In this document: positions 50,165-64,000 of the stretch, piece by piece | Layout of the letters: each line of letters begins with the position of its first letter | Numbering within the stretch: the stretch's first letter is position 1 | Source of the DNA: Ramlibacter aurantiacus | Lineage (GTDB): Bacteria; Pseudomonadota; Gammaproteobacteria; Burkholderiales; Burkholderiaceae_C | NCBI RefSeq assembly: GCF_016722895.1 | Contig: NZ_JAEQNA010000014.1 | Location: 1-64,000, forward strand | Direction of reading: 5' to 3' | Length of the DNA: 64,000 nt | The notes under the pieces: model-generated | What the model saw: only the letters and a program-made list of their open reading frames with translations | Databases searched by the model: none | What the model was told of the DNA's origin: nothing | Made by a program: the position numbers and the translations under genes

Positions 50165-50605
50165 ATGGCATCACGTGACTACAAGGACATCCTGGGGGGT
50201 GTCCTGCTGATGCTCACGGGCATCGTTTTCGCCCTGGGCGCGCACAACTACAACCTCGGCGACGCCGCCCGCATGGGCCCGGGGTACTTCCCCTCGGTGC
50301 TGGGATGGATCCTCGCGGTGCTGGGGGTGCTGATCGTGCTGCCAGCGCTGCGTCGCCCGGGCGAGCGCATCGTCGTGCAGTGGAAATCCGCCGCCCTGGT
50401 GCTGGCGGCGGTGTTGTACTTCGCCTTCTCGCTGCCGCTGCTCGGGCTGGTGCTGGCGGCCGCAGGCGCCGTGTTCATCTCGTCCCTGGCCGACCACGAC
50501 CTGACCTGGCGCGGCCGCTTCATCCTGAGCGTGGCGGTCCCGGTGCTGATGGTGCTGATCTTCATCACGGGGCTGGGCATGACGCTGTCCCCGTTCCCCT
50601 GGTAA
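50165..50605 (+). CDS. tctB: Tripartite tricarboxylate transporter small membrane subunit TctB
   Basis: The 146-residue product has four predicted helices and the TctB family N-terminus (DYKDILGGVLLMLTGIVFAL, about 5-24) followed by the conserved GPGYFPSVLGWILAVLGVLI. It ends GLGMTLSPFPW. It forms the membrane part with TctA and takes substrate from a Bug/TctC receptor. AAGGAGAGCAGGAG precedes the ATG. The 169-bp gap upstream, after the kinase gene, probably holds its own promoter. Confidence 0.92.
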   Translation: MASRDYKDILGGVLLMLTGIVFALGAHNYNLGDAARMGPGYFPSVLGWILAVLGVLIVLPALRRPGERIVVQWKSAALVLAAVLYFAFSLPLLGLVLAAAGAVFISSLADHDLTWRGRFILSVAVPVLMVLIFITGLGMTLSPFPW

Positions 50606-50621
50606 GTGCGCGGGAACCGAC

Positions 50622-52163
50622 ATGGACCTGTTCTCCAACCTCGCCATGGGCTTCTCGGCGGCCTTCGCGCCGTCGACGCTGCTGTACTGCTTTCTCGGCG
50701 TGTTCCTGGGCACGCTGATCGGCGTGCTGCCGGGCATCGGCGCCCTGGCCACCATCTCGCTGCTGCTGCCCATCACCTACCACATGACGCCGGCCGCGGC
50801 GATCATCATGCTGGCCGGCGTCTACTACGGCGCCTCGTACGGCGGCTCCACGGCTTCCATCCTGCTGAACCTGCCCGGCACGCCGTCCTCGGCGGTGGCC
50901 TGCCTGGACGGCTATCCCATGTCCAGGCAAGGACGCGGTGGCGTGGCCCTGTTCATGACCACGGTCGCCTCGTTCGTGGGGGCTGTCATCGGCCTGTTCG
51001 TCATGGCGGCCTTCACGCCGACCATCGCCGAGCTGGGCCTGAAGTTCGGACCGGCCGAATACTTCGCGATGATGCTGCTCGGCCTGATCGCCGCGTCGAC
51101 GATCGCCACCGGCTCGCCCGTCAAGGGCATCGCGATGGTGGTGCTGGGGCTGCTGCTCGGCATGATCGGCACCGACGTCAATTCGGGCGTCGCGCGCTAC
51201 AGCTTCGGCGTGCCGGAACTCACCGACGGCCTGAACCTGGTGGCGCTGGCCATGGGCATCTTCGGCATCTCCGAGGTGATCAGCAGCATCAACCGCATCC
51301 ACCACGGCAAGGCCGAGAAGATCACGCTGCGCTCGATGATGCCCACGCGCGACGACAACCGGCGTTCGGTCATGCCCATGCTGCGCGGCTCGGCCATCGG
51401 CAGCTTCTTCGGCGCGCTGCCCGGCACCGGTTCGGCCATCGCATCGTTCATGTCCTACGCCACCGAGAAGAAGGTGGCCAAGCAGCCGGAACGCTTCGGC
51501 AGGGGCGCTGTCGAGGGCGTGACGGCTCCGGAAGCCGCCAACAATGCCGCCGTGCAGACCGCCTTCGTGCCCACGCTGTCGCTGGGCATCCCGGGTGACG
51601 CGGTCATGGCGCTGATGCTGGGCGCGCTGATCATCCACGGCATCCAGCCGGGCCCGATGATGATCACCGAGCAGCCAGAGCTCTATTGGGGACTGATCGC
51701 CAGCTTCGTGATCGGCAACGTGATGCTGGTGATCCTGAACATCCCGCTGATCGGCGTGTGGGTCGCGCTGCTGCGCATCCCCTACCGCGTGCTGTTCCCG
51801 GCCATCGTGGTGTTCATCTGCCTGGGTGTCTACAGCGTGAACAACAACCCGTTCGACGTCTACATGGTGGCGCTGGTGGGGTCCATTGGCTATTTGATGA
51901 CGCTGCTCAAGTTCGAACCCGCGCCCCTGCTGCTCGGCTTCATCCTGGGACCGCTGATGGAGGAGAACCTGCGCCGCACGCTGCTGCTGTCGCGCGGCGA
52001 CCCGATGGTCTTCGTCGAGCGCCCGATCAGTGCCACGCTGCTGGCCATCGGTACGCTGGTGCTGGCCTGGAGCCTGGTGAGCTTCATGCGCGGACGCCGC
52101 AGGGTCGTCGTGGCTCCGGGTGAGCCGGACCTGCCGGTCGAGCCGGCGCCGCAACAACGCTGA
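50622..52163 (+). CDS. tctA: Tripartite tricarboxylate transporter large membrane subunit TctA
   Basis: The 513-residue product has about 11-12 membrane helices and the TctA signatures GTLIGVLPGIGALATISLLL (about 30-49) and YGASYGGSTASILLNLPGTP (about 69-88), plus SMMPTRDDNRRSVMPMLRGS. It starts 16 nt after tctB. No tctC lies directly next to the pair; the nearest receptor gene is the leftward Bug gene at 54.2-55.2 kb. Confidence 0.95.
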   Translation: MDLFSNLAMGFSAAFAPSTLLYCFLGVFLGTLIGVLPGIGALATISLLLPITYHMTPAAAIIMLAGVYYGASYGGSTASILLNLPGTPSSAVACLDGYPMSRQGRGGVALFMTTVASFVGAVIGLFVMAAFTPTIAELGLKFGPAEYFAMMLLGLIAASTIATGSPVKGIAMVVLGLLLGMIGTDVNSGVARYSFGVPELTDGLNLVALAMGIFGISEVISSINRIHHGKAEKITLRSMMPTRDDNRRSVMPMLRGSAIGSFFGALPGTGSAIASFMSYATEKKVAKQPERFGRGAVEGVTAPEAANNAAVQTAFVPTLSLGIPGDAVMALMLGALIIHGIQPGPMMITEQPELYWGLIASFVIGNVMLVILNIPLIGVWVALLRIPYRVLFPAIVVFICLGVYSVNNNPFDVYMVALVGSIGYLMTLLKFEPAPLLLGFILGPLMEENLRRTLLLSRGDPMVFVERPISATLLAIGTLVLAWSLVSFMRGRRRVVVAPGEPDLPVEPAPQQR

Positions 52164-52172
52164 TCGTGCGAG

Positions 52173-52192
52173 GCGCCCTCCCCGCAGGGCGC
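52173..52192. terminator. Bidirectional GC-rich hairpin between tctA and DMT gene
   Basis: GCGCCCT (52173-52179), loop CCCCGC, AGGGCGC (52186-52192) form a perfect 7-bp stem in the 28-bp gap between two convergent genes and touch the DMT stop codon. The position suits a shared terminator, although no T-run follows on either strand. Confidence 0.5.
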
Positions 52193-53064
52193 TAACGCCG
52201 CAGCACGTACAGCCCCGCCAGCACCAGCAGCGCACTCCCGGCCCAGGCCAACGCATTGGGCACCTGCCCCCACACCAGGAACCCGATCACGATGGCCACC
52301 AGCAGCCCGGTGTAGCGGAACGGTGCGATCACGCCCACCTCGCCGCCGGTGCGCATGCTCACCGTCAGCAGGTAATAGCCGCCACCGAGGAACACCGCCG
52401 CCGCCACCAGCATCGCGAGCTGCGCCGGCGACACAGCCTCCCAACCCTGCGTCAGCCCCCAAACCCCCGACAACAGCGTCACGGCCAAGGCGGTGCTGAA
52501 GGTCACCAGCAGCGACGAGATGCGCGCGTCGATGGTGCGGGTGACCAGGTCGCGCCCGGCCTGCATCAGCGTGCCCGCCAGGCACAGCAGCGCGTACGCG
52601 TTGAAGGCCGAGGGCGTGGGCTGAACCACCAGCAGCACGCCGAAGAAGCCGACGGCGATCGCCAGCCACTGCGACGTGCCCACGCGCTCGCGCAGCAGCA
52701 GGGCCGCGAACAGGATGGTGAAGATCGGCACGGCCATGTTGATCGCCATGGCGTTGGCCAGCGGCAGGTGGAACAGCGCGATCAGGTAGGCGAAGGTGGC
52801 GGTGGCGTCGAAGCCCGCACGCAGCAGCACCCGCCTGTCGAACAGCGCCCGCCACTGGCCGGCGGCGCCCATCGTCACCACCAGCCCGGCCAGCATGCCG
52901 GTGGCCGCGATGCCGCGCACGAAGATGGTCTGCCACGGGGGCAGCGATTCGGTGACGAACTTGATGATGGCGTCGTTGGCCACGAAGCAGGTGATGCCCA
53001 GGGCCATGGCCGCCACGCCGCGGCGCGTACCCGCGCGCCGGGTCGCTTCGAGAGATGCGCTCAT
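52192..53064 (-). CDS. DMT-superfamily transporter (EamA family)
   Basis: The 290-residue product has ten predicted helices in two EamA repeats. The first includes ANAMAINMAVPIFTILFAALL and LRERVGTSQWLAIAVGFFGV; the second includes RYTGLLVAIVIGFLVWGQVP. Members export amino acids, nucleosides or other metabolites. It is last in a leftward set after a dehydrogenase, a Bug receptor and a cupin gene. The substrate is unknown. Confidence 0.92.
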   Translation of the reverse strand: MSASLEATRRAGTRRGVAAMALGITCFVANDAIIKFVTESLPPWQTIFVRGIAATGMLAGLVVTMGAAGQWRALFDRRVLLRAGFDATATFAYLIALFHLPLANAMAINMAVPIFTILFAALLLRERVGTSQWLAIAVGFFGVLLVVQPTPSAFNAYALLCLAGTLMQAGRDLVTRTIDARISSLLVTFSTALAVTLLSGVWGLTQGWEAVSPAQLAMLVAAAVFLGGGYYLLTVSMRTGGEVGVIAPFRYTGLLVAIVIGFLVWGQVPNALAWAGSALLVLAGLYVLRR

Positions 53065-53077
53065 GTAGGGCGCGATG

Positions 53078-54139
53078 TTAAGCGGCGCGCCCAGCCCCCA
53101 GCGCGTGGAGCCGCCGCCGCCAGGCCGGCTCCAGGTACGGGTTCTTGCACGACACCGGCAGCTCGCCCGCCAGGATGCGGGTCACGTTCTCGAACGCGAT
53201 GCGCGGGATGGAGCGCACGCTCTCGCGCGTGTGGCCGACCATGTGCGGCGTGAGGATGACGTTGTCCAGCGTGCGCAGAGGGCTGTCCGCAGGCAGCGGC
53301 TCCACCTCGAAGGTGTCGAGCGCCGCGCCGGCGATGCGGCGCGTGCGCAAGGCCTCGACCAGGGCCGGCTCGTCCACCGCCTCGCCGCGCGCCACGTTCA
53401 CCAGGAAGGCCGAAGGCTTCATCAGCGCCAGCGTGCGGGCGTTGACCAGGTGCCGGTTGTCGGGCCGCACGGCCACGAAAAGCCCGACCGTGTCGGACTC
53501 GGCCATGAGGCGCTCCAGGCTCACCAGCTCCACGTGGTCGGGCACCGCGGCCGGGTCCACCCGCGGGCTGTAGGCGAGCAGGCGCACGCCGAAGGCCCCC
53601 AGCCGCTCCATCACGGCCTTGCCGATGCGCCCCAGCCCCACCAGGCCGACGGTCGAACCCTGCAGCATGGCGGCGCGCACGTCCAGGATCGCCGGGCGCG
53701 GCTCGTCGCCGCGCATCACGGCCTGGCTGTGGGCCAGCGCATACCGCAGGTTCAGCATCAGCATGACCGTGGCTTCGGCCATGCTGGCGATGTGCTCTGG
53801 CGCGCCGCCGTGGCCCACGATCAGGCCCAGTTCGTCGGCGGCCTGCAGGTCGATGGTCTCCACGCCGATGGTCGCGCCGACGATGCCCTTGAGCCGGGGC
53901 GCGGCCAGCAGCGTCTCGCGCGGGCAGCGCCAGCGTGAGCTGAACACCGCCACGTCGGCAGGAGCCAATCCATGCGACACCACCTCGTCGGGCAGGGGCC
54001 GCACCACGCCCGGCTGGTTGACAGGCCCGCGCGTCACCTCGACGCCGGTGGCCTGCAGCTGCGCGGCCAGGTCGTCGAGCAGCGGGTCCATCGTGTGGTC
54101 GCGCACGATGAACACGCGCGGTGGCATGGCCGCGCTCAT
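53078..54139 (-). CDS. D-isomer-specific 2-hydroxyacid dehydrogenase family protein
   Basis: The 353-residue product has the NAD-binding motif VGLVGLGRIGKAV (about 171-183) and the catalytic triad context: Arg in VNVARGEAVDE, Glu in FEVEPLPADSPL and His in ILTPHMVGHTRES. Such enzymes interconvert 2-hydroxy and 2-keto acids. The N-terminus has two candidate ATGs, 54139 and 54127 (MPPRVFIV). It is leftward, downstream of a Bug receptor, so it probably processes the imported acid. Confidence 0.92.
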   Translation of the reverse strand: MSAAMPPRVFIVRDHTMDPLLDDLAAQLQATGVEVTRGPVNQPGVVRPLPDEVVSHGLAPADVAVFSSRWRCPRETLLAAPRLKGIVGATIGVETIDLQAADELGLIVGHGGAPEHIASMAEATVMLMLNLRYALAHSQAVMRGDEPRPAILDVRAAMLQGSTVGLVGLGRIGKAVMERLGAFGVRLLAYSPRVDPAAVPDHVELVSLERLMAESDTVGLFVAVRPDNRHLVNARTLALMKPSAFLVNVARGEAVDEPALVEALRTRRIAGAALDTFEVEPLPADSPLRTLDNVILTPHMVGHTRESVRSIPRIAFENVTRILAGELPVSCKNPYLEPAWRRRLHALGAGRAA

Positions 54140-54215
54140 TGGATCACCTCCCCCAGGATGGCCCGCTGCGCGGGCTGTTTCTCCCCCCTGCGCAAGCGGA
54201 GGGGCCGAGCGGCGC

Positions 54216-55199
54216 TCATTCGGCGCGGATCTGGGCGCCCTTGATGATGCGGCCCCAGCTGGCGTGGCCGGCCTGGATGCGCTGGTCCAGTTGCTCGCGC
54301 GTGCCGGTGTTCACCGTCACGCCCTGTTCGTGCAGGGCGGCGACGACCTCCGGGCGCTTCATCACCTCGCGCACGTCGCGCTCGATGCGCGCGGCCACGG
54401 CGGGCGGCAGGCCGGCGGGTGCGCTGAGGGCCACCCAGGGCTCGTTCTCGAAGCCGGGGAAGCCGGCCTCGGCCAGGGTCGGCACCTGCGGCAACAGGGG
54501 GCTGCGGCTGTTGCCGGTGACGCCCAGCGCCTTGAGCTTGCCGGCCTTCACGTGCGGCACCACCTGGTTGACGCTGGCGAAGCTGATGTCCACCACGCCG
54601 GCCAGCAGGTCCACCATCGCGGGCGCGCCGCCCTTGTAGGGCACGTGCAGCATGGGCATGCCGGTGGCCGCGCGCATCTGCTCGGCGAACAGGTGCTGGT
54701 TGCTGCCGGGCCCGGAGGTCGCATAGCTGATGCCTTGCGGGCGCGAGCGGGCGACCGCCGGCAGGTCCTTGGCCGAAGCAGCCGGCACGCCGGGGTTCGC
54801 GACCAGCACGAAGGGGATGGTGCCCAGGAGCGTGATCGACTGCAGGTCCTTCAGCGGGTCGTAGCTCAGCTTCGAGTACAGGTGCGGGTTGATCTCGGGT
54901 ATGAAGTTGACGATCAGGAACAGCGTGTACCCGTCCGGCGCCGAGCGGGCGACCGACTCGGCCGCGATGTTGCCGGCCGCCCCGGGCTTGTTCTCCACCA
55001 CCACCGGCTGGCCCCACATCGGAGCGAGCAGGCCGGCGAGTTGCCGCGCCGCGAAATCGGGTGTGCCGCCGGGCGGCAAGGGCACCACGATCTTCACCGG
55101 TCGGCCCGGAAAGTCCTGCGCCTGTGCCTGCACGGCAGGCGCTCCCGCGAACAGGCTGGCCAGGGCGAAGGCCAGCCAGGCGCGACGTGTCTCGATCAT
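54216..55199 (-). CDS. Bug-family (TctC) periplasmic solute receptor
   Basis: The 327-residue product has a signal peptide (LAFALASLFAGAPAVQAQA, cleavage near residue 27) and the Bug fold with FPGRPVKIVVPLPPGGTPDF, VENKPGAAGNIAAESVA and SAPAGLPPAVAARIERDVRE. It is a plausible receptor for the TctBA pair 2 kb away, as no other receptor is nearer. The gene is leftward with a cupin gene upstream and the dehydrogenase downstream (76-bp gap). Confidence 0.93.
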   Translation of the reverse strand: MIETRRAWLAFALASLFAGAPAVQAQAQDFPGRPVKIVVPLPPGGTPDFAARQLAGLLAPMWGQPVVVENKPGAAGNIAAESVARSAPDGYTLFLIVNFIPEINPHLYSKLSYDPLKDLQSITLLGTIPFVLVANPGVPAASAKDLPAVARSRPQGISYATSGPGSNQHLFAEQMRAATGMPMLHVPYKGGAPAMVDLLAGVVDISFASVNQVVPHVKAGKLKALGVTGNSRSPLLPQVPTLAEAGFPGFENEPWVALSAPAGLPPAVAARIERDVREVMKRPEVVAALHEQGVTVNTGTREQLDQRIQAGHASWGRIIKGAQIRAE

Positions 55200-55232
55200 G
55201 TGCGTTCCTTTTTGCAGGGGGATGGCCGGGCC

Positions 55233-55736
55233 TCAGCGAGGCCCGAAGAATTCGCCGCTGAGGACGGGTTCCTCGTGCTGGTTCTCCTTGGAATTTCCCG
55301 CCATCTCACGGCCGTCGATGCCGATGCGGGCGAACATGTTGCCGCCTTCCACGGCCGCGGCACCGATGCGCAGCATCACCAGCGGCTGGCCGGGCGAGGC
55401 GCGGAAGCGGTAGAAGGTGCCGCGCGGCATCATCACCCCGTGCAGCGGGCCGATGGTCTTGAGCTCGCCGTGGGGTCCGTGGAAGTTGGCCTCGCCTTGC
55501 AGCACCACGAACACGTGGTCCTCGTCGGTGTGGGCGTGCAGCGTGTTTTCGCCCGATTCGGCATAGCCCTTGAGGATCACCGTCATGGCGGGCGTGGCGG
55601 CCAGCACGGTGTCGGTGCGGCCTGTCAGCGGCAGCGGCCCCGTCACGGCGAAGAACGAGGGGCGGCCTTCGGCGTACCTGGATTCGAAGGCGGCCTGGTA
55701 GTCGTCGATGGTGCTCAGCAGGTTGGGCTGGGTCAT
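55233..55736 (-). CDS. Cupin domain protein
   Basis: The 167-residue product has one cupin barrel with the first motif HAHTDEDHVFVVLQGEANFH (about 74-93) and a second motif around GVMMPRGTFYRFRA. Metal ligands are expected at the histidines of HAHTDEDH. I chose the ATG at 55736; a longer reading frame upstream crosses the divergent LysR gene. Its reaction is unknown. It is the first gene of the leftward cupin, Bug, dehydrogenase, DMT set, which is probably controlled by the divergent LysR. Confidence 0.85.
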   Translation of the reverse strand: MTQPNLLSTIDDYQAAFESRYAEGRPSFFAVTGPLPLTGRTDTVLAATPAMTVILKGYAESGENTLHAHTDEDHVFVVLQGEANFHGPHGELKTIGPLHGVMMPRGTFYRFRASPGQPLVMLRIGAAAVEGGNMFARIGIDGREMAGNSKENQHEEPVLSGEFFGPR

Positions 55737-55922
55737 GAGGCGGTGCGTTGACAAACGGTTCGGCGCGCCACGCCGACGGCCTGGCCGCGACCGATTCTGC
55801 GAGGGCGGGGCGGCTGCGGCCAATACCGAATTCCTCGCGACTGAGACGCGGCGCGTATCAATCCGCCGGCGGCGGTAAGCTTCCGGCACCCGGCACCGCA
55901 CGCCTGGAAGCCCGCCCGAACC

Positions 55923-56798
55923 GTGACCGAACTTCGCCATCTCCGCTATTTCATGGTGGTTGCTGAAGAACTCCATTTCAGCCGCGCCGCCGCCCGCCTG
56001 AACATGTCGCAGCCACCGCTCAGCCAGCAGATCAAGCAGCTGGAACAGGCGGTGGGAACGCCGCTGTTCACGCGCACCAAGCGCTCGGTGTCGCTGACCA
56101 ACGCCGGGCGCGACCTGTACGAGCGGGCGCTGCCCTGGCTGGAGGAGCTCGACGAGATGTTCTCGCGCGCCCGCGCCATCGGGCAGGGCGAGCAGGGCAG
56201 CATCACCGTGGGCTGCAGCTACACCACCAGCCGCCGCCTGGTGCCACAGGCCATCCGCCTGTTCGCGCAGCGCTACCCCTCGGTCACGGTGAAGCTGATC
56301 GAGGCGCAGTTCGACCGGCAGGTCGAGTACCTGGCGCGTGGCCTCACCGACCTGGCGGTGATCCGCTTGCCGGTGCGGCACGCCGATTTCGTCGCCCGCC
56401 CCTTGTATGAGGAAGACCTGGTCGTGGCCCTGCCGCCCGACCACCGCCTGGCCGGCCGTGCGCGGCTTCGGCTGCGGGAGCTGCGCCAGGAGGTCTTCAT
56501 CAACGCCAGCCGCCAGCCGGTGGGCCTGTTCGATTCGGTGCGCGCGCTGTGTGAAAGCGCGGGCTTCACCCCGCAGGTGCTGGACATCTGCTCCAACGCC
56601 CATTCGGCCGTGGGCCTGGTGGGGGCGGGCATGGGCATCGCGCTGGTGCCCGAGAGCGTGCGCCATGCCGACCACAAGCACGTGGTCTACAAGCCGCTGT
56701 CGGACTCGCCGCGGTCGGTGGTGGGCGCGGTCTGCCGGCGCAACCACTCGGCCGCGACGCAGCTGTTCGTGGACACCATCGCCGAACTCGCCGGCTAG
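55923..56798 (+). CDS. LysR-family regulator (BenM/CatM/TfdR branch)
   Basis: The 291-residue product has the LysR helix-turn-helix (VVAEELHFSRAAARLNMSQP, about 12-31, then LSQQIKQLEQAVG) of the group that regulates aromatic and carboxylic acid pathways. It begins at GTG 55923 (TELRHLRYF). Divergent from the cupin-Bug set and upstream of the class II aldolase, it may control both. In the promoter region ATAC (55823-55826) and GTAT (55855-55858) occur, but not at the ATAC-N7-GTAT spacing of known BenM sites. Confidence 0.92.
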   Translation: MTELRHLRYFMVVAEELHFSRAAARLNMSQPPLSQQIKQLEQAVGTPLFTRTKRSVSLTNAGRDLYERALPWLEELDEMFSRARAIGQGEQGSITVGCSYTTSRRLVPQAIRLFAQRYPSVTVKLIEAQFDRQVEYLARGLTDLAVIRLPVRHADFVARPLYEEDLVVALPPDHRLAGRARLRLRELRQEVFINASRQPVGLFDSVRALCESAGFTPQVLDICSNAHSAVGLVGAGMGIALVPESVRHADHKHVVYKPLSDSPRSVVGAVCRRNHSAATQLFVDTIAELAG

Positions 56799-56901
56799 GG
56801 TTTTCATATCCGAAACGTCTCAGTCGCGTCCTGGGAGGTATTGGACCGGGCAGGCCGCGCGGACCAGAATGCCGCCTTCTCCGGATCCGCCAGACCGTGC
56901 C

Positions 56902-57645
56902 ATGACCTCGCCAACCCCATCGCTGCGCGACGCGCTGCAGGACCTCTCGCTGGCCTGCCGCATCCTCGAACTCGAAGGCCACGGCGACATGTCGCTGGGC
57001 CATGTGTCGCTGCGCGACCCCGGCGGTCGCGGCTTCTGGATGAAGCGCAACCGCATCGGCCTGGGCGAGGTGTGCGGACCGGCCGACTTCGTGCTGGTGG
57101 ATTTCGACGGCGTCAAGCTCGAGGGCGAGGGCGGGCGCCACTCGGAGTGGCCGATCCACTCGGAGATCCTGCGCAACCGACCCGACGTGCAGGTGGTGGC
57201 CCACACCCACCCGTTCTACTGCTCGGTGCTGTCGGCGTCATCCGAGCCCCTGCTGCCCTTCACGCTGGACACCGACTATTTCATCGACGTGCCCAAGCAC
57301 GTGGACGACGTGGCGCTGATCACCACCAAGGCCGAGGGGCAGTCGCTGGCCAGGTCGCTGGGCGAGCACTTCGCGGTGCTGATGGGAAACCACGGCCTCA
57401 CCTTCTGCGGCGGCTCCATCGCCGAGGCCACCTGCATCGGCGTGTTCGTGGAGAAGGCCGCCAAGGCCAACGTGGTGGGCCGCTCCGCCGGCTTCGCCCA
57501 CGCCATGCCGCTGCCCGAGACCCGCACCCGCCGGCGCTCGCAGATCATGACGCCGGCGCACATCGAGCACTCGTGGAACTACTTCAAGCGCAAGCTGGCG
57601 TGGTTCCTGGATCGCACGGTGGCGCCGGGTGCGGTGTTCCGGTGA
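56902..57645 (+). CDS. Class II aldolase/adducin family protein
   Basis: The 247-residue product has the fuculose-phosphate aldolase-like fold. Metal ligands are likely the two His in VVAHTHPFYC and the His in LMGNHGLTFCG. An acidic residue in HSEWPIHSEIL is the expected base. The family cleaves or decarboxylates phosphorylated or keto-acid substrates. I chose the ATG at 56902. It lies downstream of the LysR and may act after the 2-hydroxyacid dehydrogenase, which is an inference. No obvious ribosome site is visible. Confidence 0.88.
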   Translation: MTSPTPSLRDALQDLSLACRILELEGHGDMSLGHVSLRDPGGRGFWMKRNRIGLGEVCGPADFVLVDFDGVKLEGEGGRHSEWPIHSEILRNRPDVQVVAHTHPFYCSVLSASSEPLLPFTLDTDYFIDVPKHVDDVALITTKAEGQSLARSLGEHFAVLMGNHGLTFCGGSIAEATCIGVFVEKAAKANVVGRSAGFAHAMPLPETRTRRRSQIMTPAHIEHSWNYFKRKLAWFLDRTVAPGAVFR

Positions 57646-57911: not shown

Positions 57912-60900
57912 ATGAACCAGTCTTCGTGCCTTACGGGTGCCGTGCTGCGCTGCATTACCGCAGCCGCGGCCGGCTTGCGTCACTCCACGGTCTGCCTCCT
58001 ACAGGGCCTGCTGATGACTGTCCTTCCGGTCAGTGTCTCGGCCGCGCAGCCTGTGGTCCCGGCCAATTCACACACTGATCCTGCAGCCGATCTGCAAACC
58101 GTCAGTCGCGGCTTACGCTGGATGCAGGCCCAACTCGCTGTGAACCAGCCGCTGCAGGCCGGCCGCGTGGCCGATCAGGCGCTGGTGAGTTGCGAGGGGG
58201 CCGGCACCTGGCTGCGGCTAGGTGGCGAGCCTGGCGCGGTGCGAGCCGTGCTTGCCGCCATACCTCAAACCCTGGCAGCGCCGGGCGCCGCCACCCAGTG
58301 GCTCGGATGTGCCAGCGCCGTTGCGCTCGTTCCGCGTTGGCGAACGCCCGATGACCTGCAGGCGCGGCGCCTGGGTGCACGGGGCTACGCCGCGTTCCTG
58401 GGGCAGCAAAGCGCCAGCGTGCTCGACACCGCCTGGGCGCTGCGCAGCTGGGAGGCGGACGACGCACTCGCGCCGTTGTTGGCCTGGTTGACCGAGGTGC
58501 AGTCGGTGGACGGCAGCTTCCCGACGGCCGGCCAGCCCGACCTCCTGGCCACGGCGGCGGTGGTTCGCGCGCTGCAGTCGCACGTGGCCCGCCATCCGGG
58601 CGCGGCGCAGTTGGCAAGCAGCGCGGCACGCTGGCTTCTGGCGCAGCGTGATGCGCAGCGCCAGTGGCAGGACGACAGTGCCCTCACCGCGGCGGTTTTC
58701 GAGGCGGTGCATCCCTACACCAGCGATGCTCCCGAGGTGGCGGCGGACGTGGGGCGCTTCCTTCGATCCAGCCAGCGCGCCAGTGGCGCCTGGGCCGAGC
58801 AGGGGGTCGATGACCTGTACGTGACCGCGCTGGCCCTGCGGGCATTGGCCCTTGTCGATGAACCTCCGCGCAACCCCGCCCTCGGCGCAGGTGCGGTCAT
58901 TGCCGGTCGCGTGCTCGATGGCAGAAATCAGCGGCCTCTCGCCGACGTGCGTCTCCAGGCCCAGCCCGCCGGCGGCCCCGCGCGCGAGCTGCTCACGGAT
59001 GCATCGGGCTCCTACCGCGTGGAGGGCATCGCGCCCGGCGCGGTGCAACTGACAGCGCAGCGCGAGGGGTACGCACCGGTGCACGCTGTGGCCCAACTCG
59101 CACCGGCCATGACCGCCACCTTCTCGCCGACCTTGTGGCCGCTCGCTTCGCAGCCGCCGGCAGCAGCCCTGCTGCACGGCCACACCGTCGATGCACAGAC
59201 CGGGCTGCCGCTCGTGCAAGCCCTTGTGCAACTGCAAGTCGCCGGCGCGCATCGCTCGTCGACCCTCACAGACACCCAGGGCCGCTTCGAGCTGCCGCTC
59301 GAAGGCGACGGCCAGGTGTCCGTCGCTTTCATCCGGGACGGATACGATTCGGTCGAGCAAGCCTTCGTGCTCACGTCGGGCAGCAGCCTTGCTGTGGGCG
59401 GCGTGCCAATGCGGCCAGTGCGCCGTGCTGCGCCGGCCGAGCCGCCTGTTGCCGGCGCGCCCACCTGGACGGCGCCGGTTCTGTCGCCGGGGGAGCTTGG
59501 CCTGCGCGAGGCGCTGCGGGCCAGCGCAAACCTGTCGCATTCCGGCCCCCTGCCGGTCGAGGTCGCCTTGACTGCAGCGATCATCGACGCGCAAGGCGGC
59601 GTCATCGCACGGCCAGCCGTATTGGACAGCGCCGGCACACCGGTGGCCAGCGTCTTCCTGTCCCCCGGCACCGAGCTGGGGGTGCAGGTGCAGTGGACCA
59701 GTGGCGCGCACCCGCCGGGCCGTTACCAGCTTCGTCTGCAGGCGCAGCAGCCCGGCGCCGCAGAGGCGCGCGATCCCGACGGGGTCGTGCTGTCTCAGAC
59801 GCAAGCGACCTTCCAGATTCGAGCTGCACCGAGTCTTTCGGGCGAGCCGCAGGCCTCGCCTTCCGTCGTGCGCGCCGGCCGGGGTGAGCCGGTGGCCCTG
59901 GCGGCCTTGCTGCGCAACGACGGCAACATCGCGCTGCCCGCGCAGCGCATTCAGCTGGAAGTCGTGGAGCGCGTCAGCGGGCAACGCCGCCACGCCGTAG
60001 CCGTCGACGCTGCCGCCTGGGGACAGGGTCAGCTGGCCACGCTGGACTTCGGCGTCTGGCATGCGCAGGAGGCCGGTGACTACGAACTGCGGCTGTCCGC
60101 CGCGTCCGTGCCGGGCACGCTGTTGCGCGGGTCCTTGTATGTCGGCGACAGCGCGTCCGGCCAATTCACCGTGCATCCGGCCCAGGTCGAGCCCGGCACG
60201 GCACGGGTTCGCGCGACGGTCAGCGTGCAGGGGCAGGACGTCCAGCGCCGTGCCAGCGTCGATCCCCTGGTTCCGCTGGTGCGCGCTGCGGTCGTCGGTG
60301 CGGTCCGTGCCGGCGATCGGCTGGCCTATGACCACTATGTGACCAGCAATGCCAGCTACGGTCGTTGCTTCATGTGTCATGTGCAGTCGCAGGCCGTTGC
60401 CGGTGGCGAGCGCAGCCTTCGGCACATGGCGCCCGACAGCCCGCTGCGCCGTGCGGTGCTGATGTCGGCCGTCACGCAAAACCTGATTCATCCGGAAGAC
60501 AGCAGCATGACCCGCACCGGGCCGACCCAGCTACCGGCCAAGGTCGCCTACCGCGACTCGCCGGGTGGATACACCCACACCAACACCACGCTGGGCCTTT
60601 GGGCGGCCGGTTATTGGCACGACCCAGTGGCTGTCCATCTTTCGCGAGTGCGCATGGCCGAATACCTCATGCGCGTGCAACAGTCCGACGGTGGCTGGAG
60701 CGCAGACCACCCGGACGGGTGGTGGCGTGCGCCCGTGGCGCTGGTGGCGCTCAATGCCGGCAGCCTGGCGGCGCTGCGCGATGCGCTTCAAACCCTGGGC
60801 CCAGCGGTGGGCCGGCAGTTGCAGCCCTGGCCGGTGGCTGGCCTGCCCGCCGGCCAGAAGCGCCTGTCCGCCAGTCCGGACGGCACCGTGTACGTCACGC

Positions 60901-63900
60901 TCTTCGGCGGCGATCTCTGGGCGGTGGCACCCGCCGGCGTGGCCAGGCGCCTGGTCGCTGATGTGCCGGTGCGCAGTGCCTGGCCATTGGAGGCTGGGCG
61001 ACTGTTGATCGGCTCGTCCCAGGGCGTGTTCGTGCGCGAGGTCGACGGGCAGATGCGTCGCCTCTGGAACGCCAACGTCTTCGATGCCCAGCCGATGCCC
61101 GATGGGCATTTCCTGGTCACCTTGTGGGGTGGCGACAGCCTCTACCGGCTCAGCCCCGATGGGCAGGCCACGGTGCTGGTTCGCGACGCTCAACTGGCAG
61201 GAACGATGGGCGTTGCCCGGATGCCCGACGGCTCGCTGATCGCATTCGGTCAGAACCGCGGCACCGTGCTGCGCTTCGGCGCCGATGGCAGCCGCCTCGA
61301 ATCGCCGGTGCCTGTCACGCCCGAGGGCGCCATGATGAATGCGATTGCCTACGGCGACGGGCTGCTGCTGGCCCACCAGACGGGGCTCTACTTCTACAAC
61401 CGCGAGGGCGTGGCCCAGCGATGGACCCACCAGGGCGCCTTTGGCCAGGTGGTATTGCCCGACGGCCGACTGATCGTCGAATCCGGCGGCATCTTGCACG
61501 AGGTCGTCGAGCAGGCTATCGATCCGGCCCCCACCCGCGCCCGCATCGACCAGTCGATGGAGCGGGCGGCTGGCTGGCTGTTGTCGGCCTCCCGTGCCGC
61601 CGAGGACAACAACGTCGAGCAGGCCTTCAGGCTCATGGGCCTGTCGCATGCACGCCGCTTTTTCAAGGGCACGGCGCGTGCGAACGACTTCGACGCCGCC
61701 ATCGCCGAGGTCGCCGCGCGCTTGCTCGCCCGTCAGCGGCCCGATGGCGGCTGGTCGGCCAGGCGCAATGGAGCCACCAGCGACTCGATGGTCACCGCCA
61801 TGGTGGGCATGGGGCTGGATGCGCTCAGCCCGTCGCCGCGTGCACCCGAGGTCCGCAAGGCCGTCCAGTTCCTGCTGGCCTCCCAGCGCGCTGACGGACT
61901 CTGGTACTCGGAAGACCGTGTGGCGGGGACGGCCCTGATGGCCACCACCTGGGTCGAGCTATGGCTGCCCATGGTGCTGGAGCGGCTTGGCGGCATCGAC
62001 ACCGAGCTGCACATCAGCCTGCCCGCTGGCGCCGCGCTGGACACCCCCGAGCCCGCGCCGATTCGCGCAGTCACCAACAGCCACGGTGGTCGTGACTACG
62101 TCTGGAGACTCACTGGCGTCACTGACGCAAACCGCGAGGTGAGCTTCAACCTCACCCTGGACGGCTTGACGCAGGACGAAATGCGCCCGGTGGCCAGTGC
62201 CGCTGAACTCGTCTTCGACAACAGCCTGATGCCGGGCGAGACGGTGCGGTCCTCGCTCGGTATCCCGGCAGTCATGGCCGGTACGCGTCTGGCGCTCGCC
62301 CTATCCACCGACAAACCCGCCTATCGCCCCGGCGAGCGGGTGCTGCTGCACACCGACGTGCGCAACGACAGCCCAGGCGCGCGAACAACCCAGCTTCGCT
62401 TGCGCGTGCTCGATGCGTCGGGCCGCGAGGTGGAGTGGCTGCCGGCCGGTGATGTCCTGGCCATGGCACCCAGCCAGTCGCAGCGCACCCAGGCCGCTTG
62501 GCCGGCGGATGCCATGCTGGCCGGTGACTACGTGGCCGAGGCCCAACTGCTGTCAACGGCGGGCCAGGTCTATGCCACCGCCCGCGCGCCACTGCACATC
62601 GAGCCCGGGGACGAACCGGCCAATGCCGCCCGCCTGGTTGCAGATCGCAGTCGCTACGACACCGCGCAGCCCGTCGTGCTGAGCGCACGGGTCCTCAATC
62701 GGTCGGTCAACCTGCTGCAGCAGGGGCTGGTGGCTCGAACACTCGTGCAGTCCGCCAGCGGCGCGGCCATGTTCGAGCGTGCCGAACCCATCGAGCAGCT
62801 GCCGGCCGGCTCACAGCGTCCGTTCATCTACCACCTGGCCGCCGGCAGCCTGCCTGCTGGCCGCTACCGCGCGCAGCTGGAACTGCTGAATGGTGGTGAT
62901 CCGCTCGCCTCCAGTGCGACCGAGTTCGAAGTGCTTGGCAGCGAACGCACCGGACTCGGCCTGGAGGGCGCCCTGCAGGCGCCGCCCCGCGCCCTCATCG
63001 GGCAGCCGGTGCCCCTGCGTTGGCACGGCCGCCACCAAGGCGATGCGGCAATGATCGACCTGCCCATCGACATCGTCGTGCTGGAACCGGCAACCGGCCG
63101 GGTCGCTGCGCGTTTCTCAAATCGGCTGCCACGCTGGGCCCCCGGAGAAACACCCGTGCTCACCGCCAATTGGCCTGCACAAGGGACTGACGGACAGGCC
63201 TGGGTCCTGGCTGCCAGCACCACCTTGCAGGGTCGCGAGTTGGCGTTGGGCCACGCGCCGCTGGTGATCCTGGGCCAGCCGCGGATGGTGTTTGCGGATC
63301 CGGGAGTGGATTTCGGCTCTGCCCAGGCAGGCACACCGCTGGAGCGTGCCGCGGTGGTCCAGTCCGCCGGCACCGCCTCCGCTCGTCTGGTCGACTTCCA
63401 CCTGGAGGGGCCGGCTGCCGGCGCCTACGCGCTGACCGCCACGGAGTGCGCCCCGCCGGCCACCCTGCCCGCGGGGAGCCAGTGCGGGCTTCGGCTGCGC
63501 TTCCTCGCAGCGCAGGCCGGCAACCATCCGGCCGTGCTGGTACTGCGTTGGCAGCACCCGGCGGACACCGCCGTCGCCGGCGAAACCCGCCTCGCCTTGT
63601 CAGCCCAGGCCACCACGCCGCTGCTGCGTGGCAGCCTGCATGCCCAGCCACGCGTGGTCGATGCCGGCCAGCCGCTGGCCCTGACCTATGGCCTGACCAA
63701 TCCCGCGCCGGTCTCTGCCGCGAGTTCTGTCAGCCTGACGGTGCTGGACCAGAAAGGCCGCAGCGCGGACCGGTGGACCTTAGGGCCCAACTTGCGCCCC
63801 GGGGGCACCCACCTGGGCAGCCAGACCTGGACGGTGCCGTCGCACTGGCCGCCGCAAACAGCCACTGCCGTGCTCACGCAGCAGGTGGCCGGCGGTGAAG

Positions 63901-64000
63901 TGCACCTTGCCAGCACCAGCTTCCAGGTAGTCGATGCGCTGGGACCCGTGCGTGCGCAGGTGCACCGCATCGCCGTGCCGCGCCTGCTGGTCCTGCTGTC
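57912..64000 (+). CDS. Giant exported multidomain protein with toroid repeats and a CFMCHVQ motif (3' end cut off)
   Basis: The frame stays open from the ATG at 57912 to the window end, giving 2029 full codons with no stop. I do not recognise a named family. Visible in order: a signal peptide (VCLLQGLLMTVLPVSVSAAQ, cleavage near 45); toroid-like repeats near Q197 (QSVDGSF) and Q288 (QRASGAW); two carboxypeptidase-regulatory-like beta domains (about 327-392, 420-485); beta-sandwich stretches; Cys819-x-x-Cys822-His823-Val-Gln825; further QxxDGGW-type repeats at 924-929, 1275-1281 and 1325-1331; a propeller-like segment of repeated PDG turns (about 980-1200); macroglobulin-like domains (TDKPAYRPGE at 1466-1475); and a Hydin/ASPM-like beta domain (about 1790-1890). 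It is probably periplasmic or surface-exposed. The function is unknown. Confidence 0.85.
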   Translation, partial: MNQSSCLTGAVLRCITAAAAGLRHSTVCLLQGLLMTVLPVSVSAAQPVVPANSHTDPAADLQTVSRGLRWMQAQLAVNQPLQAGRVADQALVSCEGAGTWLRLGGEPGAVRAVLAAIPQTLAAPGAATQWLGCASAVALVPRWRTPDDLQARRLGARGYAAFLGQQSASVLDTAWALRSWEADDALAPLLAWLTEVQSVDGSFPTAGQPDLLATAAVVRALQSHVARHPGAAQLASSAARWLLAQRDAQRQWQDDSALTAAVFEAVHPYTSDAPEVAADVGRFLRSSQRASGAWAEQGVDDLYVTALALRALALVDEPPRNPALGAGAVIAGRVLDGRNQRPLADVRLQAQPAGGPARELLTDASGSYRVEGIAPGAVQLTAQREGYAPVHAVAQLAPAMTATFSPTLWPLASQPPAAALLHGHTVDAQTGLPLVQALVQLQVAGAHRSSTLTDTQGRFELPLEGDGQVSVAFIRDGYDSVEQAFVLTSGSSLAVGGVPMRPVRRAAPAEPPVAGAPTWTAPVLSPGELGLREALRASANLSHSGPLPVEVALTAAIIDAQGGVIARPAVLDSAGTPVASVFLSPGTELGVQVQWTSGAHPPGRYQLRLQAQQPGAAEARDPDGVVLSQTQATFQIRAAPSLSGEPQASPSVVRAGRGEPVALAALLRNDGNIALPAQRIQLEVVERVSGQRRHAVAVDAAAWGQGQLATLDFGVWHAQEAGDYELRLSAASVPGTLLRGSLYVGDSASGQFTVHPAQVEPGTARVRATVSVQGQDVQRRASVDPLVPLVRAAVVGAVRAGDRLAYDHYVTSNASYGRCFMCHVQSQAVAGGERSLRHMAPDSPLRRAVLMSAVTQNLIHPEDSSMTRTGPTQLPAKVAYRDSPGGYTHTNTTLGLWAAGYWHDPVAVHLSRVRMAEYLMRVQQSDGGWSADHPDGWWRAPVALVALNAGSLAALRDALQTLGPAVGRQLQPWPVAGLPAGQKRLSASPDGTVYVTLFGGDLWAVAPAGVARRLVADVPVRSAWPLEAGRLLIGSSQGVFVREVDGQMRRLWNANVFDAQPMPDGHFLVTLWGGDSLYRLSPDGQATVLVRDAQLAGTMGVARMPDGSLIAFGQNRGTVLRFGADGSRLESPVPVTPEGAMMNAIAYGDGLLLAHQTGLYFYNREGVAQRWTHQGAFGQVVLPDGRLIVESGGILHEVVEQAIDPAPTRARIDQSMERAAGWLLSASRAAEDNNVEQAFRLMGLSHARRFFKGTARANDFDAAIAEVAARLLARQRPDGGWSARRNGATSDSMVTAMVGMGLDALSPSPRAPEVRKAVQFLLASQRADGLWYSEDRVAGTALMATTWVELWLPMVLERLGGIDTELHISLPAGAALDTPEPAPIRAVTNSHGGRDYVWRLTGVTDANREVSFNLTLDGLTQDEMRPVASAAELVFDNSLMPGETVRSSLGIPAVMAGTRLALALSTDKPAYRPGERVLLHTDVRNDSPGARTTQLRLRVLDASGREVEWLPAGDVLAMAPSQSQRTQAAWPADAMLAGDYVAEAQLLSTAGQVYATARAPLHIEPGDEPANAARLVADRSRYDTAQPVVLSARVLNRSVNLLQQGLVARTLVQSASGAAMFERAEPIEQLPAGSQRPFIYHLAAGSLPAGRYRAQLELLNGGDPLASSATEFEVLGSERTGLGLEGALQAPPRALIGQPVPLRWHGRHQGDAAMIDLPIDIVVLEPATGRVAARFSNRLPRWAPGETPVLTANWPAQGTDGQAWVLAASTTLQGRELALGHAPLVILGQPRMVFADPGVDFGSAQAGTPLERAAVVQSAGTASARLVDFHLEGPAAGAYALTATECAPPATLPAGSQCGLRLRFLAAQAGNHPAVLVLRWQHPADTAVAGETRLALSAQATTPLLRGSLHAQPRVVDAGQPLALTYGLTNPAPVSAASSVSLTVLDQKGRSADRWTLGPNLRPGGTHLGSQTWTVPSHWPPQTATAVLTQQVAGGEVHLASTSFQVVDALGPVRAQVHRIAVPRLLVLL

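What the first reader, a model, noticed from the sequence alone, without database searches (positions are those of the whole stretch)
57912..64000. Giant exported protein combining toroid repeats, beta domains and a lone redox/thioester motif
One reading frame of at least 2029 codons, with signal peptide, runs off the window. Its order of modules (terpene-cyclase-like QxxDGGW repeats, carboxypeptidase-regulatory-like domains, a CFMCHVQ site, a propeller-like part, macroglobulin-like TDKPxYRPGE domains, a Hydin-like domain) does not match any protein I know. I consider it the best candidate for an undescribed system. Its reading frame was checked through to the window end by eye.
Basis: partly seen in the sequence, partly recalled or inferred. 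Interest (0 to 1): 0.82.

Follow-up and report, generated by a model that had tools for sequence, protein, structure and literature searches.

The report
Giant exported partner of RHS toxins
A very large bacterial protein, predicted to be exported and built from ring-shaped, propeller and sandwich domains with a likely heme site, sits directly before a gene of the kind that makes toxins bacteria use against each other, and relatives of the two genes keep recurring side by side, so it is probably the toxin's surface partner.

Summary
The frame is open: 2437 aa, ending 1.2 kb beyond the window. It is no chimera, since single-ORF relatives share its architecture. Relatives of that gene carry RHS repeats or another conserved region, a variable C-terminus and a small gene, as in the inactive-transglutaminase polymorphic toxins described in 2012 (PMC3482391). 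Of 18 loci found by similarity to the giant alone, 17 have this gene as neighbour. Conversely, 16 of 17 assessable strong partner loci in 399 genomes of the order lie near a toroid-protein gene; five of these are short (~500 aa), three with sub-threshold IPTL-CTERM tails. I read the giant as an elaborated toroid partner that docks or displays the toxin at the surface (inferred). The 'redox/thioester' motif is CxxCH, a c-type heme-attachment motif, conserved in 9 of 9 complete modules; the genome encodes ResB. Function is inferred from genomics; nothing was tested at the bench. I found no description of the pairing in the searches listed.

The parts
57912..58046 (+). Start codon and predicted signal peptide (aa 1-45)
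   Evidence: GGGAGGA before ATG; hydrophobic N-terminus; cleavage site judged by eye
58107..58853 (+). N-terminal alpha/alpha toroid (aa 66-314), the part shared most widely across giants
   Evidence: A2 profile matches squalene-hopene cyclase chains at 4e-5; 40-46% identity of four same-genus copies to this one; N-toroid profile hits in 15 of 18 loci, weakest in G286 (26 bits) and G135 (29 bits)
58899..59120 (+). Carboxypeptidase regulatory-like domain 1 (aa 330-403)
   Evidence: PF13620 4.1e-18
59175..59387 (+). Carboxypeptidase regulatory-like domain 2 (aa 422-492); also a weak teneurin TTR-like match
   Evidence: PF13715 7.5e-8; PF25020 3.1e-5, 24.3 bits, below its cut-off of 27
60261..60791 (+). 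Helical CxxCH module (aa 784-960), absent in some relatives
   Evidence: A4/A5 alignments; no Pfam match for the window member at E 10; model pLDDT mostly below 50 around the motif
60366..60380 (+). CFMCH = CxxCH, c-type heme-attachment motif (aa 819-823)
   Evidence: C, C and H conserved in 9 of 9 complete modules
60798..61520 (+). NHL/Vgb-like beta-propeller (aa 963-1203) between two helical toroid-like parts
   Evidence: AlphaFold model, 10-residue mean pLDDT 62-93; PDB matches TRIM2 NHL and Vgb lyase, E about 5e-11
61527..61985 (+). Second helical toroid-like block (aa 1206-1358)
   Evidence: PF13243/PF13249 at aa 1264-1332; helices in the model
62301..62447 (+). MG2-like macroglobulin domain with TDKPAYRPGE (aa 1464-1512)
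   Evidence: PF01835 7.8e-8, 33.0 bits, cut-off 32.8
63300..63542 (+). choice-of-anchor D domain (aa 1797-1877), absent from the two copies in G020
   Evidence: NF012200 3.8e-9, 37 bits, below its cut-off of 45; gap in G020a/G020b
63948..64000 (+). Start of the conserved C-terminal region; it continues outside the window to contig C6 position 65222 (stop ends 65225). The partner gene starts at ATG 65222 (my choice; the longest frame starts at GTG 65192) and runs to the contig end, 67056
   Evidence: L005; A1 profile

Best explanation
The giant is the upstream partner of an exported polymorphic toxin. Both proteins go out by signal peptide. The downstream protein has an inactive transglutaminase-like domain, then an RHS shell (or another conserved region), then an exchangeable toxin tail followed by a candidate immunity gene. 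The most likely mechanism is that the giant's N-terminal toroid, the feature shared between giant and short partner proteins, binds the inactive transglutaminase domain and holds the toxin at the cell surface. The carboxypeptidase-regulatory, macroglobulin-like and propeller domains would act as stalk and as contact or recognition surfaces. In this subtype a covalently bound heme c in the CxxCH module would add a redox-responsive or structural element. Shown by sequence: gene order and its recurrence, predicted export signals, loss of the catalytic Cys, variable tails, module swapping, CxxCH conservation. Inferred: toroid-transglutaminase binding, surface display, heme loading, toxicity of the tail and any role in killing competitors.
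For: The two genes overlap by 4 bases here and lie 19-21 bases apart in four same-genus copies, start codons chosen by me. The transglutaminase-like gene is the neighbour in 17 of 18 loci found with giant-only queries (for finding; 12, 48, 49, 60, 75 for the partner). Co-occurrence in 399 genomes of the order: 9 of 9 genomes with the giant's C-terminus have a partner of at least 130 bits, against 8 of 390 without; Fisher p 4e-14. That p is descriptive only: relatedness is not corrected, I take the two calls to have drawn the same 399, and five of the nine genomes supplied rows to the partner profile (the other four did not). In the reverse direction, 16 of 17 assessable strong partners have a toroid-protein gene nearby. 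The pairing also occurs on a plasmid of Spartinivicinus ruber (annotated toroid protein 48 bp upstream). The catalytic Cys is missing in 10 of 10 aligned partners, its position judged from the recalled family consensus. Two RHS partners are 53-79% identical over about 2400 alignment columns, then the C-terminus falls to 21-38%. The giant is mosaic too: two copies in one genome share a 96.5% identical 2.5-kb 3' part but differ in the middle. Contig C2 ends in cassette-like copies of partner C-termini, one stretch sharing 40 of 40 residues with the end of this partner. CxxCH is conserved 9 of 9 and ResB is present at 1e-136.
Against: No binding, localisation or killing data exist. This giant has no C-terminal anchor (maximum hydropathy 1.4), so its surface retention is unexplained. 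One locus (G207:C2) has the giant's C-terminal region but neither toroid nor transglutaminase hit. In G743 the partner gene is upstream with a small ORF between. One strong partner (G068:C90) has no toroid hit in the 2.7 kb of contig upstream. Six more distant transglutaminase-like loci have no toroid hit nearby: four plasmid loci (Burkholderia, Methylomonas, Variovorax, Caballeronia) and G074 and G136; G105, a short fragment, has none either. Of the five short partners only two exceed a Pfam cut-off for a toroid-type family (L095 SQHop_cyclase_C, L096 TED_complement), and all three IPTL-CTERM matches are below cut-off. CxxCH is missing from 8 of the 18 giants (one more is cut off before the motif), no second heme ligand is invariant, and Pfam finds no cytochrome domain. 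The tail of this partner lies beyond the contig end, so its toxin is unknown.
Confidence: 0.55

Rival explanations
1. The giant is a separate surface adhesin or S-layer-like protein that merely travels with the toxin genes in one recombining island.
For: Its domains (CarboxypepD_reg, MG2, choice_anch_D; CARDB in relatives) are common modules of surface proteins ('common' is from general knowledge). Distribution is patchy (CxxCH module in 5 of 399 genomes of the family) and its middle is swapped.
Against: Neighbourhood with the partner in 17 of 18 loci from several families, and short toroid proteins of about 500 aa that keep the pairing.
Confidence: 0.22
2. The giant is an alpha-2-macroglobulin-like trap: MG domains plus a toroid that captures foreign proteases by a thioester.
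For: An MG2 match just above its cut-off; TED_complement matches in relatives, one above its cut-off (L096, 32.9 against 22 bits) and two below (L049, L095); a C-x-x-Q spacing inside CHVQ in 8 of 9 modules.
Against: No CxEQ motif in any of 23 proteins or parts scanned. The Gln is Gly in one module while CxxCH is invariant. No A2M core domain in the window protein; one relative has it only at E 0.08. Giants lacking the module exist.
Confidence: 0.08
3. It is an enzyme related to squalene or terpene cyclases.
For: SQHop_cyclase Pfam matches and QxxDGGW-type repeats.
Against: No D-x-D-D(T/S) motif. NCBIfam cyclase models score 23-36 bits against cut-offs of 323-851. The protein is predicted to be exported and the second toroid-like region is interrupted by a propeller.
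Confidence: 0.03
4. The giant acts as a heme-c redox sensor or electron carrier of its own, with the toxin association secondary.
For: CxxCH invariant in 9 of 9 modules, weak cytochrome c6 alignment at E 0.12 over the motif, ResB in the genome.
Against: Two of five same-genus copies keep the partner gene but lack the module entirely; no invariant second ligand.
Confidence: 0.12

Closest known systems
Inactive-transglutaminase RHS polymorphic toxins (Zhang et al. 2012, PMC3482391; passages and section 19 read)
   Same: The downstream gene: signal peptide, transglutaminase-like domain with lost catalytic residue, RHS repeats, variable C-terminus. That paper suggests the domain anchors the toxin at the surface by binding peptides.
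   Different: The held text (first 300,000 of 357,715 characters) has no occurrence of toroid, macroglobulin, terpenoid, prenyltransferase or heme, and I saw no partner gene in the passages read. Some partners here show no RHS repeats.
Spartinivicinus ruber WP_163836657.1, 'prenyltransferase/squalene oxidase repeat-containing protein' next to WP_163836658.1, 'RHS repeat-associated core'
   Same: Annotated toroid protein directly before a gene that matches the transglutaminase-like region and is annotated RHS.
   Different: 587 aa only, no CxxCH; its domains were not scanned further; annotation is by similarity.
Bacterial teneurin-like proteins (PMC13018210; outline, passages, sections 6 and 10 read)
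   Same: Toxin in a YD/RHS shell with an NHL propeller, variable tail and immunity gene, predicted surface exposure; delivery unexplained there too.
   Different: There the superfold lies in one polypeptide. Here the propeller (and a weak TTR-like match) is in one protein and the RHS shell, where present, in another; no common descent was shown.
Squalene-hopene cyclase family
   Same: alpha/alpha toroid with QxxDGGW-type repeats.
   Different: Catalytic D-x-D-D motif absent; far below family cut-offs.
Alpha-2-macroglobulins
   Same: MG2 domain and a toroid like the TED fold.
   Different: No CxEQ thioester and no A2M core domain in this protein.

Membership tests
Inactive-transglutaminase RHS polymorphic toxin (partner gene) | N-terminal signal peptide or TM followed by a transglutaminase domain with a lost catalytic residue | tested here: met
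   PF01841 8e-16 in P0002; Cys absent in 10 of 10, His kept in 9 of 10, Asp in 10 of 10; signal peptide judged by eye from the translation
Inactive-transglutaminase RHS polymorphic toxin (partner gene) | RHS repeats after the transglutaminase | tested here: inconclusive
   Listed for G020a, G008, G286, G415; not listed for G003, G256, G743, G207:C27 or the contig-cut G068. Our own partner is cut by the contig end; its end resembles the kind without RHS
Inactive-transglutaminase RHS polymorphic toxin (partner gene) | Variable C-terminal toxin with an immunity gene | tested here: inconclusive
   C-terminal divergence seen; five partner tails scanned match no toxin family above a cut-off (one PIN match at 21.3 bits against 23.6); following small genes scanned (five, four) match no immunity family
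Squalene/terpene cyclase | Family score and D-x-D-D motif | tested here: not met
Alpha-2-macroglobulin | CxEQ thioester in TED | tested here: not met
   no CxEQ; MG2 only marginal
c-type cytochrome | CxxCH motif in an exported protein | tested here: met
   9 of 9 modules; export predicted only; ResB present; CcmH family not found
c-type cytochrome | Recognised cytochrome domain and second axial ligand | tested here: not met
   no cytochrome family in Pfam for 5 members at E up to 10; no invariant distal His or Met
c-type cytochrome | Covalently bound heme | not testable with these tools
   needs protein
Bacterial teneurin-like protein | FN-plug, NHL and YD shell in one polypeptide | tested here: not met
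   propeller is in the giant; no RHS repeat family is listed for the giant, while it is for RHS-type partners

The most novel reading that the evidence does not exclude
Exported inactive-transglutaminase RHS toxins are two-component weapons: a dedicated toroid protein, from about 500 aa with an IPTL-CTERM-like tail to several thousand aa, docks the toxin through the dead transglutaminase fold, and in one branch carries a heme c that may gate release. NHL-propeller and RHS-shell parts, fused in teneurins, are here divided between the two proteins.
Probability: 0.25. Interest if true: 0.82.

Novelty: new variant of a known kind. Interest (0 to 1): 0.62.

Why it matters
How RHS/YD-type toxins without an obvious delivery machine are delivered and released is stated as open for bacterial teneurin-like proteins (PMC13018210, discussion), and surface anchoring by the dead transglutaminase fold was a suggestion in 2012 (PMC3482391). 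A recurring partner gene turns that into a simple pull-down, deletion and localisation experiment. A heme-c motif in a toxin partner would also be unexpected.

Tried and rejected
Frameshift or chimera: rejected, since intact homologues of 2253-2486 aa exist. Terpene cyclase and alpha-2-macroglobulin: rejected on motif and score. Phage-defence families: no match. tblastn of the giant against plasmids: no match. Solved structures for the C-terminal region: none up to E 10. The AlphaFold model of that region failed (mean pLDDT 44) and was not searched. Sigma-70-type promoter before the gene: none found. Toxin identity of partner tails: five tails scanned, no toxin family above a cut-off. Literature: searches gave no paper on the pairing (listings only were seen, apart from PMC3482391 and PMC13018210). 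One search listed 20 of 1,359, 10 of 12, 15 of 156 and 10 of 116. Only openly licensed PMC papers are held.

Rows dropped before counts. G056, a single-domain hit (query 408-482); of 21 rows of at least 130 bits, three were dropped at contig edges (G240:C20, G203:C5, G256:C13) and one remnant in G294. Of the remaining transglutaminase rows, nearly all short, only G136, G074 and G105 were followed. The cut at 130 bits was chosen after seeing the list, and the partner profile used there was built from neighbours of giants, so it favours partners like them.
Full report
What is there. The frame starts at ATG 57912 with a good ribosome site and continues past the window. In the 67,056-base contig it ends at 65225, giving 2437 aa. 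The next gene, taken to start at ATG 65222, overlaps by four bases and runs off the contig after 611 codons. Its only Pfam match is Transglut_core, 8e-16.

Anatomy of the giant. Predicted signal peptide, N-terminal toroid, two carboxypeptidase-regulatory-like domains, sandwich-like parts, a helical CxxCH module, an NHL-like propeller, a second toroid-like block, an MG2-like domain, a choice-of-anchor D domain and a conserved C-terminal region. The AlphaFold model of aa 776-1371, from three sequences, has mean pLDDT 67.9. It shows the propeller between two helical blocks; the stretch around CxxCH is mostly below pLDDT 50, so its fold is not established. Foldseek ranks NHL domains and Vgb lyases first.

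Relatives. In 61 close genomes, 5 matched; four carry full homologues (own, G003, G008, and G020 with two copies) and one a single shared domain. Matching record titles name Ramlibacter for three of the four other copies and an unnamed Burkholderiales genome for the fourth; all are 'same genus'. The C-terminal profile found 9 of 399 genomes in the order. The CxxCH profile found 2 of 369 in the class, 2 of 299 in the phylum and 5 of 399 in the family, own genome included each time. Merged, these are 18 loci.

The partner gene. In 17 of the 18 loci a transglutaminase-like gene is the neighbour: directly downstream on the same strand in 16 and upstream, with one small ORF between, in one (G743). 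The exception is G207:C2. Pfam confirms the domain in 10 of the 17; the other seven rest on a profile built from seven of those ten. In G1077 the partner is in pieces in different frames, and the G179 giant is split by a frameshift. Two partner kinds exist: transglutaminase plus RHS repeats (for example 2744 and 2713 aa), and transglutaminase plus another conserved region and a variable tail, with no RHS listed. The catalytic Cys is absent in 10 of 10 aligned partners, which fits the class defined in PMC3482391 (section 19).

The reverse view. The partner profile matched 109 of 399 genomes at E 0.001, mostly as short hits. Of 21 rows of at least 130 bits, in 17 genomes, 17 rows could be judged. 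Sixteen have a toroid-protein gene nearby: ten giants (in G294 a 2913-aa one), one divergent toroid gene cut by its contig end (G360), and five short proteins of about 500 aa. In four of the five the short gene directly precedes the partner; in G383 it lies 3.8 kb upstream with another ORF between. One (G068:C90) has none. Three of the five short proteins match IPTL_CTERM, two of them within 1 bit of its cut-off and none above it; one more has a similar hydrophobic-Arg tail and one a dockerin-like end. Three giants of about 2000 aa and G294 also end in a hydrophobic stretch followed by arginines. In Spartinivicinus ruber, listed as a gammaproteobacterium, the annotated neighbour of an RHS protein is a toroid-repeat protein. 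More distant transglutaminase/RHS loci showed no toroid hit: four plasmid loci, G074 and G136, and the fragment G105, so the pairing belongs to a part of the class, not to all of it.

Mosaic evolution. Two RHS partners stay 53-79% identical over about 2400 columns, then diverge after the RHS core. Two giants in one genome share a 2.5-kb 3' part at 96.5% DNA identity but differ in the middle: one has the CxxCH module, the other FG-GAP/CARDB-like domains. In our genome contig C2 ends with rearranged copies of partner C-terminal stretches and small ORFs; one stretch shares 40 of 40 residues with the end of our partner. That resembles orphan toxin cassettes, and it suggests, without proving it, that the two contig ends are close.

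The motif. CxxCH is present in 9 of 9 complete modules; 8 of the 18 giants lack the module and one (G1392) is cut before the motif. The Gln that would make a C-x-x-Q thioester is Gly in one module. A profile search gave cytochrome c6 only at E 0.12. The genome encodes ResB (1e-136), and the CcmH family was not found, so a system II pathway for heme attachment is likely. I rate covalent heme at about 0.6. No second ligand is conserved, so its role is open.

Interpretation. The common core of 500-aa and multi-thousand-aa partners is an exported toroid protein. The 2012 paper suggested that the dead transglutaminase fold binds peptides to anchor the toxin; a toroid partner gives that idea a candidate ligand. 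This is inference from gene order and shared presence, not a demonstrated interaction. The name 'toxin' for our own partner is by family, since its tail is not in the contig.

Novelty. The toxin class is known. I found no description of the toroid partner or of a heme-type module in it in the searches listed, which cover open PMC papers only and were partly capped lists.

Noticed in passing
L119:9219-11022 (contig C2 end): Rearranged copies of partner C-terminal stretches with small ORFs between them, one piece with stops; one stretch shares 40 of 40 residues with the partner at the end of contig C6.
   Followed up: partly
own genome contig C1 1574737-1589730: A separate RHS-repeat cluster (open frames of 2501, 1010 and 822 aa) on another contig than the window.
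   Followed up: no
L043/L044 and L046/L047: Two relatives reach open frames of 6226 and 7089 aa, the largest seen here.
   Followed up: partly
L092:1-3490: Toroid gene and transglutaminase gene in divergent orientation (G360), the only such case seen.
   Followed up: no
L048:7298-19001: A giant with the conserved C-terminal region but no toroid hit, ending in a sub-threshold IPTL-CTERM match, about 6 kb before an RHS-like frame.
   Followed up: no
own giant aa 2428-2436 and four same-genus copies: Three invariant cysteines at the very C-terminus (CxxCxxxxC) and further invariant cysteines in the N-toroid and C-terminal region, possibly disulfides.
   Followed up: no
window 50165-57645: Upstream genes look like an ordinary tripartite tricarboxylate transporter, hydroxyacid dehydrogenase, LysR regulator and class II aldolase set (names by eye from the translations, no family search).
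   Followed up: no
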